Shown: positions 37,591-41,607 of the stretch, in pieces
Layout: each line of letters starts with the position of its first letter
Numbering within the stretch: position 1 is the stretch's first letter
Origin: Thermopolyspora flexuosa
Lineage (GTDB): Bacteria; Actinomycetota; Actinomycetes; Streptosporangiales; Streptosporangiaceae
DNA length: 64,000 nt
Direction: 5' to 3'
NCBI RefSeq assembly: GCF_006716785.1
Contig: NZ_VFPQ01000001.1
Location: 3,906,001-3,970,000 of the forward strand
Notes under the pieces: model-generated
What the model was told of the DNA's origin: nothing
The model's input: the letters and a program-made list of their open reading frames with translations, nothing else
Databases searched by the model: none
Position numbers and translations under genes: made by a program

Positions 37591-38850
<1,260 letters not shown>

Positions 38851-39144: not shown

Positions 39145-39531
39145 TCAGAACAGGAAGGCGCGGGGGGCATCGGCGCCGCTCGGGATCCACCTCGGGGTGT
39201 CCGCGGCCTCGTCGCTGATCGCGGTGAGCACGCCCTGGCGGTAGAGGCTGAGGCGCTTGCGCCACTCGGCCATGTCCTTCAGGTACCGCTCCGCCACCGG
39301 CGCGTCCCACACCTCCCGGCTCTGGGCCTTCTTCTGCACGTCGGCCAGTGACGCGTTGAGCTTGTCCAGCAGCGGTACGACCTGGTCCCACAGGTCGACG
39401 AGCTTCTGGTACTCGGGGTTGAACACCCAGGTGGTCGCCTGGCCTCCGGGCGCGAGCTGCTCGGCGGGCGACTGCCGGGGCGGCGACTCGCCGGGTGCCA
39501 TCGGCTTCGGCCGGGGCGGGTCAACGAACAT
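39145..39531 (-). CDS. Small helical protein, possibly WXG100-like, partner of the repeat protein
   Basis: I do not recognise this 128-residue protein. After a Pro-rich N-terminus of 35 residues it is predicted largely helical. The first helix is NPEYQKLVDLWDQVVPLLDK. A second hairpin starts at VWDAPVAERYLKDMAEWRKR and runs to about residue 110. A W-x-x-x-x-A/Y-F/Y turn between two long helices is what WXG100/ESX small proteins look like, and that is the only basis for the comparison. The ATG at 39531 lies 12 bases after the stop of the repeat-protein gene, with AAGGA between, so the two are one operon. The tail ends RAFLF. Confidence 0.6.
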   Translation of the reverse strand: MFVDPPRPKPMAPGESPPRQSPAEQLAPGGQATTWVFNPEYQKLVDLWDQVVPLLDKLNASLADVQKKAQSREVWDAPVAERYLKDMAEWRKRLSLYRQGVLTAISDEAADTPRWIPSGADAPRAFLF

Positions 39532-39543
39532 GCGCGATCCTTT

Positions 39544-41607
39544 CTACGTTCCCATCGACCGGCCCGGGCGCTCGCCGTCGTCGCAACGGCCGCCGCCGTC
39601 CGCCCGGCCGTCGCCCGCGGCGCCGGCGCCGCCGGTCCCCGTGCCGTCCGTACGCGCTCCGGCGGAGGCTCGGCCGCCGGGCTCGTCCTGCCCCTGACGC
39701 GCGCCTGTCTCCGTCCCCGCCGCGCCGTCCGCGGTCGCCGGCGCGTCGACGTACGGCATGAGCGTGACGCCGTCCCTGGAGGCGAACGGGCCGCCGCTCT
39801 CCTGGCCCAGGGCCGCACCGCGTACCGCCGGGTACGGCTCGCCGTACCGCGCGGTGGCCGCGCCGTCGCCGGCACGGGCACCGCCGACCGGCTCCGCCCG
39901 CTCCTGCCGCCCGTTCGCGTCCGTCCCGGCCGCGCCGTCCCCGCTCCCCGAGCCCTCCAGGTACGGCATCAGCGAGATGCCGTCCCGGTTGACGATCGAC
40001 ACGTCGCCACGCGCGAACGCATCCTCCGTACTCACCGCACCGCCACGCTCGACACCCTGCGACCCGGCCGACTCCACCCCCGCGACCTCACGATCGGTGA
40101 TCGGATACCGCGAAGCGTCCGAGGGGGCCTCCGCGCGTCCACCGGCCCCGTCCGTGCCCGCGGCGCCCGCCGGATCACCGGCCGTGCCGGCGCCGGGTGT
40201 GGTGGGCTCCATCCGCCCGGCGGCGCCGTCCGCCCGTGGCCCGCCGCCGTCGGAGGCGCCGAGTCGTCCGTCCTCCGCCCCGGGCATGCCGAACGGCTGG
40301 ATCCTGTCCATGTTCTGCTCCAGCCACCGCAGGTAGGCCTCGCTCGGCGGCTGAAGGGAGCCGGTCACCACCTTGACGCCGTCGACCTCGATCACCCGCA
40401 GACCCCTGCTCGCAGGGATGTCGTCCGGGTGATCCTTGCCGTCGGTGTCCGCGATCGCGTCCCCGCCGGCCCCCTTGCCGGCGTCGGCGCGGTCACCACC
40501 CTTGTCCGTCCGCGCGTCCCCGGCCGCGTCGGGTTTCGCACCGTCCGGCTCACATCCGCCCTTACCACCGGCGGCACCCTCACCGGAACCGCGGCGCTCG
40601 GCCTCACCCTTACCGCCGGACTCCCCGGACTCGCCCTTACCACCGGCGGCATCCCCACCGGAGCCACGACGCTCGGCCTCACCCTTACCGCCGGACTCCC
40701 CGGACTCGCCCTTACCACCGGCGGCATCCCCACCGGAACCGCGGCGCTCGGCCTCACCCTTACCGCCGGACTCCCCGGACTCGCCCTTACCACCGGCGGC
40801 ACCCTCACCGGAACCGCGACGCTCGGCCTCACCCTTACCGCCGGACTCCCCGGACTCGCCCTTACCACCGGCGGCATCCCCACCGGAGCCACGACGCTCG
40901 GCCTCACCCTTACCGCCGGACTCCCCGGACTCGCCCTTACCACCAGCGGCACCCTCACCGGAACCGCGACGCTCGGCCTCACCCTTACCGCCGGACTCCC
41001 CGGACTCGCCCTTACCACCAGCGGCATCCCCACCGGAGCCACGGCGCTCGGCCTCACCCTTACCGCCGGACTCCCCGGACTCGCCCTTACCACCAGCGGC
41101 ACCCTCACCGGAACCGCGACGCTCGGCCTCACCCTTACCGCCGGACTCCCCGGACTCGCCCTTACCACCAGCGGCATCCCCACCGGAGCCACGGCGCTCG
41201 GCCTCACCCTTGCCACTCGACTCACCCTTGCCGTCACCGGCGGCGCTCTCACCGGGACCGCGGCGCTCGGCGTCACCCTTGCCCTTGGATTTGGCGGAGT
41301 CCTCCGGTTTCGCGCCGGGGTCGTCGGCGGGCTTCTTTTCGCCCATCGCGTCCGGGGTCGTCACGGACGGCTTCTTCTGCTTCTCCTCCTTCTCGAGGAG
41401 GGCGAGCCGGGCCTCGACGTCGCGGATCATCTTGTCGACGTCGTCGGCCACCTGGGAGGGACGGTACGTGGTCTTCGCGGACAGGCCGGCGTTGCTCAGC
41501 AGTTGGGTGACCCTGGCGTCGACCGAGCGCATCTCCTTGGCGGCCTGGCGCAGCTCGGCGAGGAGCCTGCGGACCGGCCCCGGGTTCATGCCGTCCAGCT
41601 TGGGCAT
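39544..41607 (-). CDS. Large disordered protein with nine tandem 25-residue repeats
   Basis: No named family recognised. The 687 residues have four parts. (1) A helical N-domain (1-85) of two amphipathic helices, VRRLLAELRQAAKEMRS and ADDVDKMIRDVEARLALLEK. (2) A charged Gly-rich array of 25-residue units, GGKGEAERRGSG followed by GD or EG, then AAGGKGESGES. (3) A conserved-looking linker with VIEVDGVKVVTGSLQPP and YLRWLEQNMDRIQPFG. (4) A low-complexity C-terminus with two copies of a motif, NRDGISLMPYLE and SRDGVTLMPYVD. No signal peptide or membrane helix. The ATG at 41607 follows GGGAGACGGT at ideal spacing, better than the GTG at 41640. The downstream 128-aa gene is coupled. Confidence 0.75.
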   Translation of the reverse strand: MPKLDGMNPGPVRRLLAELRQAAKEMRSVDARVTQLLSNAGLSAKTTYRPSQVADDVDKMIRDVEARLALLEKEEKQKKPSVTTPDAMGEKKPADDPGAKPEDSAKSKGKGDAERRGPGESAAGDGKGESSGKGEAERRGSGGDAAGGKGESGESGGKGEAERRGSGEGAAGGKGESGESGGKGEAERRGSGGDAAGGKGESGESGGKGEAERRGSGEGAAGGKGESGESGGKGEAERRGSGGDAAGGKGESGESGGKGEAERRGSGEGAAGGKGESGESGGKGEAERRGSGGDAAGGKGESGESGGKGEAERRGSGGDAAGGKGESGESGGKGEAERRGSGEGAAGGKGGCEPDGAKPDAAGDARTDKGGDRADAGKGAGGDAIADTDGKDHPDDIPASRGLRVIEVDGVKVVTGSLQPPSEAYLRWLEQNMDRIQPFGMPGAEDGRLGASDGGGPRADGAAGRMEPTTPGAGTAGDPAGAAGTDGAGGRAEAPSDASRYPITDREVAGVESAGSQGVERGGAVSTEDAFARGDVSIVNRDGISLMPYLEGSGSGDGAAGTDANGRQERAEPVGGARAGDGAATARYGEPYPAVRGAALGQESGGPFASRDGVTLMPYVDAPATADGAAGTETGARQGQDEPGGRASAGARTDGTGTGGAGAAGDGRADGGGRCDDGERPGRSMGT
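40562..41236. repeat. Nine 75-bp tandem repeats
   Basis: Units start at 40562, 40637, 40712, 40787, 40862, 40937, 41012, 41087 and 41162. They are nearly identical over 75 bp; only the last decays from about 41212, and a tenth, degenerate trace runs to about 41290. Two variants, differing at the EG/GD codons, mostly alternate, so a 150-bp higher-order unit exists with one slip. A silent C-to-T difference splits units 1-5 from 6-9. There are no spacers, so this is not a CRISPR array. Confidence 0.95.

What the first reader, a model, noticed from the sequence alone, without database searches (positions are those of the whole stretch)
39145..41607. Undescribed two-gene cassette: repeat-bearing disordered protein plus a small helical partner
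Directly seen: a 687-residue protein with a helical head, a 25-residue charged Gly-rich repeat array, a linker with a WLEQNMDRIQPFG-like segment and two LMPY motifs, followed after 12 bases by a 128-residue helical protein. Neither matches a family I know. The helical hairpins resemble WXG100/ESX substrates or their adaptors in pattern only. The cassette lies between core genes (glyA and tsaC), so it may be a lineage-specific envelope or secretion component.
Basis: partly seen in the sequence, partly recalled or inferred. Interest (0 to 1): 0.72.

Follow-up and report, generated by a model that had tools for sequence, protein, structure and literature searches.

The report
Disordered protein with WXG100-like helical partner
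Two neighbouring genes, found together at the same place in over 70 species of one soil-actinobacterium family, encode what looks like a distant cousin of the paired proteins that type VII secretion machines export, here carrying a long floppy tail instead of a toxin or enzyme.

Summary
The large gene (39544-41607, minus strand, 687 aa) has a helical head and a 75-bp/25-aa tandem repeat. After 12 bases comes the small gene (39145-39531, 128 aa). The pair is under purifying selection. It is present as an intact, syntenic pair (tsaC - large - small - [glyA] - wecA) in every one of 73 Streptosporangiaceae loci long enough to show it, and was not found outside that family in the genomes searched. 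Pair-less relatives have tsaC next to wecA.

The pair matches no Pfam or NCBIfam family, but it is not without relatives. The small protein is homologous to paralogs with a true W-x-G motif and, more distantly, to canonical WXG100 proteins. The large head is homologous to the heads of the 650-750 aa proteins encoded with those paralogs. Such paralogous pairs also lie beside EssC/EccC-type ATPases in other genomes. Both folds are modelled as helical hairpins.

Best reading: a diverged WXG100-type substrate pair with a lineage-specific disordered acidic passenger, probably exported by an FHA-EssC type VII-like system elsewhere in the genome. Two defining marks of classical substrates, W-x-G and YxxxD/E, are missing. 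Export and dimer formation are inferred, not shown.

The parts
39544..41607 (-). large gene, 687 aa: helical head, repeat array, disordered acidic linker, conserved C-block, variable tail
   Evidence: dN/dS 0.26 overall
41353..41607 (-). head, residues 1-85 (K-L-D-G-M-N-P...): helical hairpin H9-39/H50-78, most conserved part of the large protein
   Evidence: AF2 pLDDT 84.7; alignment A5; homologous to paralog heads, hhalign score 32.7 vs null max 16.8
40557..41280 (-). 75-bp (25-aa) tandem repeat array, about 9.7 copies, charged Gly-rich
   Evidence: sister genome has fewer, diverged copies
40198..40455 (-). conserved C-block (residues about 385-470): KDHPDDI...RVIEVDGVKVV...PPSEAYLRWLEQNMDRIQPFGMP...GPRADGAAGRMEP
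   Evidence: [VIL]DGx[KR][VI] in 64 of 78 distinct orthologs; dN/dS 0.24
40282..40326 (-). WLEQNMDRIQPFGMP segment inside the C-block; the 'xxMxDIxPMDMP' element recurs in several orthologs
39960..39971 (-). LMPY motif 1, only in the window and its sister (LLPY there)
39751..39762 (-). LMPY motif 2, only in the window and its sister
39145..39531 (-). small gene, 128 aa: Pro-rich N-terminal arm (DPPxPxPxxPGExPP), helical hairpin, AADTPRW segment
   Evidence: 113 GTDB stretches encode a relative
39202..39417 (-). helical hairpin of the small protein (H39-70, H78-110)
   Evidence: AF2 mean pLDDT 82.5, helices mostly above 90
39301..39309 (-). W75-D-A in the inter-helix turn, in the place of W-x-G of the paralogs
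39538..39543 (-). AAAGGA, likely ribosome-binding site of the small gene in the 12-base gap
   Evidence: read directly

Best explanation
The cassette encodes a diverged WXG100-type heterodimeric substrate pair. The small protein is a helical hairpin in which the W-x-G turn has become W-D-A. It pairs, as in EsxA/EsxB or PE/PPE, with the hairpin head of the large protein to form a four-helix bundle. The bundle escorts the rest of the large protein, a long acidic disordered chain of variable length with a conserved C-terminal block, to an EssC/EccC-type FtsK ATPase encoded elsewhere in the genome, and so out of the cell, where the disordered chain acts on or in the cell envelope or extracellular matrix. 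Shown here: the gene pair, its strict co-conservation, purifying selection, predicted hairpin folds, homology of both partners to a paralogous pair with a true W-x-G motif, and location of such paralogous pairs beside EssC-type ATPases. Inferred: the dimer, export, and the extracellular role.
For: (1) Two-sided homology to one paralogous system. Small vs paralog smalls: hhalign probability 98.1, score 79 against column-shuffled null max 24. Head vs paralog heads: 32.7 against null max 16.8. (2) The paralog smalls have W-x-G (13 of 13) and reach WXG100 profiles (score 44 vs null max 14.6; TIGR03930 at E 0.0029 and 0.0009). The small family itself scores 26.4 against canonical WXG100s (null max 15.9; unrelated helical controls about 14). 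(3) Relatives of the small gene lie beside 1500-aa EssC-like ATPases in six genomes, and head-bearing partners are there too in at least four of those loci (L163, L164, L166, L168). (4) The head is found in exactly the 20 genomes that have the small gene, plus weak hits in one other, and directly precedes it in 73 of 73 loci long enough to show it. (5) All 20 pair-bearing genomes have an EssC-like ATPase, against 28 of 41 pair-less family members (Fisher p 0.006). (6) AF2 hairpins; Foldseek's top PDB row is an EsxA for both.
Against: No W-x-G (47 of 49 sequences have WDA or WNA) and no C-terminal YxxxD/E in the window protein. No Pfam or NCBIfam hit above cut-off for either protein. Fold matches have Foldseek E about 1 or more and Z below 8, which for helical hairpins may mean only a common arrangement. 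Head vs canonical WXG100 is weak (score 18.4, helical controls up to 15.4). The ATPase is not near this locus, so the link to it is by paralogs and co-occurrence only, and the co-occurrence test ignores phylogeny. Column shuffles also remove helix periodicity, so that null is lenient.
Confidence: 0.55

Rival explanations
1. The pair descends from a WXG100-type pair but is no longer secreted: a cytoplasmic or membrane-associated scaffold, with the hairpin bundle as oligomerisation module and the disordered tail as a flexible hub that binds partners through its 'DIxPMDMP' motifs.
For: Loss of W-x-G and lack of YxxxD/E, no signal peptide or transmembrane stretch, vertical single-copy inheritance at one core-gene site in contrast to mobile effector loci, ATPase not linked at this locus.
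Against: Paralogous pairs sit beside EssC-like ATPases; every pair-bearing genome keeps such an ATPase. Other type VII partners are only structurally similar to WXG100 (Lap proteins, PMC9600955), so a missing W-x-G does not exclude export.
Confidence: 0.25
2. The small protein is a chaperone or targeting factor (Lap-like) that stays inside while only the large protein is exported and displayed.
For: T7SSb LXG effectors need small WXG100-like partners encoded beside them (PMC9600955; PMC10653861); same gene arrangement here.
Against: Differs only in a detail that sequence cannot decide; the conserved AADTPRW segment after helix 2 could equally be a recognition signal.
Confidence: 0.12
3. A generic pair of helical hairpins unrelated to type VII secretion; the similarity is amphipathic-helix convergence.
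For: Fold-library matches are not significant; helical hairpins are common.
Against: Both partners match the same paralogous pair independently; unrelated helical controls score about 14 against 26-79 for the small protein.
Confidence: 0.08

Closest known systems
WXG100 family (EsxA/EsxB; PF06013, TIGR03930)
   Same: Small protein is a helical hairpin with a Trp turn, encoded in a pair; profile similarity through paralogs with W-x-G.
   Different: W-D-A in place of W-x-G; a 35-residue conserved Pro-rich N-terminal arm; no curated family hit; no YxxxD/E.
PE/PPE pairs and EspB-type substrates (T7SSa)
   Same: Hairpin head plus long, low-complexity or disordered C-terminal passenger; two-gene operon (analogy from general knowledge).
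   Different: Partner order is large then small; no PE or PPE family hit; no EccD in the genome; different lineage.
LXG effectors with Lap1/Lap2 partners (T7SSb, PMC9600955)
   Same: Large protein with helical N-terminal targeting domain and a small WXG100-like partner encoded next to it.
   Different: One partner only; C-terminus is disordered and shows no toxin domain; no LXG; no immunity gene seen.
Paralogous pairs of Streptosporangiaceae: 650-756 aa head-bearing protein (some with DUF6571, PF20211) + 93-102 aa W-x-G protein, often with a small lipoprotein
   Same: Both partners homologous to the present pair; three such pairs lie in the window's own genome (L021, L169, L170).
   Different: Those have a helical domain of about 500 aa, and often an extra lipoprotein, where this pair has a disordered tail; gene order varies.

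Membership tests
WXG100 family | W-x-G motif in the turn between two helices | tested here: not met
   W75-D-A; 47 of 49 orthologs WDA/WNA; W lies in the turn
WXG100 family | helical-hairpin fold of about 100 residues | tested here: met
   AF2 H39-70/H78-110, mean pLDDT 82.5
WXG100 family | reaches the curated profile cut-off (PF06013, TIGR03930) | tested here: not met
   no hit for P0001
WXG100 superfamily (homology in the wide sense) | profile-profile similarity to W-x-G proteins above controls | tested here: met
   score 79 to W-x-G paralogs, 26.4 to canonical WXG100s; controls about 14
WXG100 superfamily (homology in the wide sense) | significant fold match to Esx structures | tested here: inconclusive
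   EsxA ranks first in Foldseek but E about 1; Esx rows Z 6-7
T7SSa (ESX) substrate pair | YxxxD/E export motif near the C-terminus of the bundle | tested here: not met
   absent in the window's small protein; 11 of 49 orthologs have only W/HxxxD/E
T7SSa (ESX) substrate pair | EccB-E membrane complex in the genome | tested here: not met
   no EccD (TIGR03920) in the window's genome; EccB and EccE not searched; EssC/EccC-like ATPases present
Type VII-like substrate pair (any subtype) | secretion dependent on an EssC/EccC ATPase | not testable with these tools
   needs an experiment; co-occurrence 20 of 20
Type VII-like substrate pair (any subtype) | heterodimer of small protein and head | not testable with these tools
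LXG effector | LXG domain and C-terminal toxin domain | tested here: not met
   no such Pfam hit; tail is 70-88% disorder-promoting residues (PGSTQEKDNA) across orthologs

The most novel reading that the evidence does not exclude
A family-wide, single-copy secreted disordered polymer of Streptosporangiaceae, exported by an FHA-EssC type VII-like machine that has no EccD, as an extracellular or sporangial matrix component: a housekeeping rather than antagonistic use of WXG100-type export.
Probability: 0.2. Interest if true: 0.75.

Novelty: new variant of a known kind. Interest (0 to 1): 0.5.

Why it matters
It extends WXG100-type pairs to a case where the passenger is a rapidly changing disordered chain and the pair is a core, vertically inherited trait of a whole family of soil actinobacteria, not a mobile toxin. 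It also gives a handle on the FHA-EssC systems of these bacteria that lack EccD: the pair and its paralogs are candidate substrates with which to test whether those systems secrete at all.

Tried and rejected
Pfam and NCBIfam scans of both proteins: nothing above cut-off. Scanning 27 members: only scattered sub-threshold hits. Fold searches of both models against the PDB: Esx proteins at the top but not significant, mixed with unrelated hairpins such as LSD1 and seryl-tRNA synthetase, so not used as proof. Direct head-to-small homology (were they duplicates of each other?): no signal, score 10.2, 34 of 60 shuffles as high. Head vs W-x-G paralogs: not significant (4 of 60 shuffles). Toxin reading: rejected, since the tail shows no domain and there is no immunity-like gene. 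Chance ORF or repeat artefact: rejected by dN/dS and by 73 of 73 synteny. Papers on type VII secretion in Streptosporangiaceae or on DUF6571: none in the library.

Full report
Observation. The repeat is a clear 75-bp tandem array, 9.7 copies at 91% match. Both genes have ribosome-binding-like sequences (GGGAG before the large, AAAGGA before the small). Against the nearest relative, a 6.3-kb contig of metagenome-assembled genome ZC4RG28, dN/dS is 0.33 for the small gene, 0.24 for the head, 0.24 for the C-block and 0.20-0.33 for the rest. These are genes, and repeat copy number is what changes fastest.

Distribution and synteny. Searching 100 relatives, the small gene is strong (E below 1e-35) in 20 of 61 same-family genomes (the window's own included) and in none of the 39 outside the family. 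The head profile hits the same 20 genomes, plus weak hits in one other. In GTDB, 113 stretches encode a relative. The 80 kept are from named Streptosporangiaceae genera (Planotetraspora, Acrocarpospora, Microbispora, Sphaerisporangium, Microtetraspora, Sphaerimonospora, Herbidospora, Streptosporangium, Planomonospora, Planobispora, Spongiactinospora, Nonomuraea, Sinosporangium, Thermocatellispora, Thermoactinospora, Bailinhaonella) or unnamed relatives of them. In 73 of the 80 loci the head-bearing gene directly precedes the small one; the other 7 stop at a contig end. tsaC lies upstream and wecA downstream in nearly all, with glyA between in most. In most of the pair-less relatives examined, tsaC is followed directly by wecA. 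So the pair probably entered one site in the ancestor of this group and stayed.

Anatomy. The large protein varies from 325 to 1143 aa. Its first 80 residues are conserved (G6, M7, P9, V12, R13, L16, A40, G41, P50, A54, D63, R67, L71, E72, K73 invariant in 34 sequences). The middle is 70-88% disorder-promoting residues and mostly net acidic, with no transmembrane stretch in 78 proteins. Near the end comes a C-block around 'KDHPDDID...VDGVKVV..PLxPPS...DIxPMDMP' (64 of 78 by a short regular expression), whose last part can recur up to about six times. The small protein has a conserved Pro-rich arm, a hairpin and an AADTPRW segment. AF2 gives two-helix hairpins for both.

Relatives beyond the orthologs. 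The own genome and others encode distant paralogs: a 93-102 aa protein with a true W-x-G (VWTGPxA) beside a 650-756 aa protein whose head begins '(S/C)G(I/M)(D/N)P', often with a small lipoprotein. Profile comparison with shuffled-column nulls gives small vs paralog smalls score 79 (null max 24), paralog smalls vs a set of canonical WXG100s 44 (null max 15), small vs those WXG100s 26 (null max 16), and head vs paralog heads 33 (null max 17). Unrelated helical alignments (atpF, atpH) score 12-15 with the small protein and head. Both halves of the cassette thus trace to the same kind of pair, and the small half traces on to WXG100.

Link to type VII machinery. The window's genome has two 1500-2000 aa FtsK-type ATPases that match EssC and EccC models below their cut-offs (TIGR03928 561 and 506 bits) with weak FHA-like N-termini. 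Canonical WXG100 genes lie close by, and a Tad pilus operon beside one. The genome has no EccD. Relatives of the small protein lie beside such ATPases in six genomes, and in at least four of those loci a head-bearing protein is there too: G023 (L164), G082 (L166), G002 (L168), and G012 (L163; here the adjacent small proteins called as genes did not themselves hit the profile). All 20 pair-bearing genomes have such an ATPase, against 28 of 41 pair-less ones (p 0.006, not corrected for phylogeny).

Mechanism. I take the most likely function to be a type VII-like substrate pair: hairpin and head form the targeting bundle, and the disordered chain is the passenger. LXG effectors of T7SSb are exported with the help of small WXG100-like partners (PMC9600955), and partner proteins encoded with substrates are reported for the newer subtypes T7SSc-j (PMC11217815). 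The missing W-x-G and YxxxD/E mean it cannot be filed as a classical WXG100 or ESX substrate. They also leave room for a non-secreted scaffold, the main rival. Dimer, export and outside role are inferences.

Novelty. No paper found in the searched library describes type VII secretion in this family or DUF6571, and the pair has no curated family. I rate it a new variant of a known kind.

Noticed in passing
G000:C1:4255001-4295000 (L048, L049); also L051 (G035): An FHA-EssC-like ATPase with canonical WXG100 genes near a Tad pilus operon in Actinomycetota, without EccD in the window's genome. Tad adjacency was reported for the Bacillota subtypes T7SSg/h (PMC11217815); this may be an unnamed subtype.
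   Followed up: partly
L021 9509-12502, L169 8630-10981, L170 5414-8591 (own genome): Three paralogous pairs of a W-x-G protein and a 650-708 aa head-bearing protein, two with a small lipoprotein gene that could be an immunity or anchoring partner. A homologous 714-aa protein (L023) carries DUF6571.
   Followed up: partly
L163 3345-4304 (G012): A 319-aa protein with the GMNP head, a Ser/Gly-rich disordered stretch and one hydrophobic (transmembrane-like) segment, 4 kb from an EssC-like ATPase: a possible membrane-anchored relative of the large protein.
   Followed up: no
window 37591-38787: A glyA gene is present at this site only in part of the pair-bearing genomes and was not seen in the pair-less ones examined, so it was gained or lost apart from the pair.
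   Followed up: no
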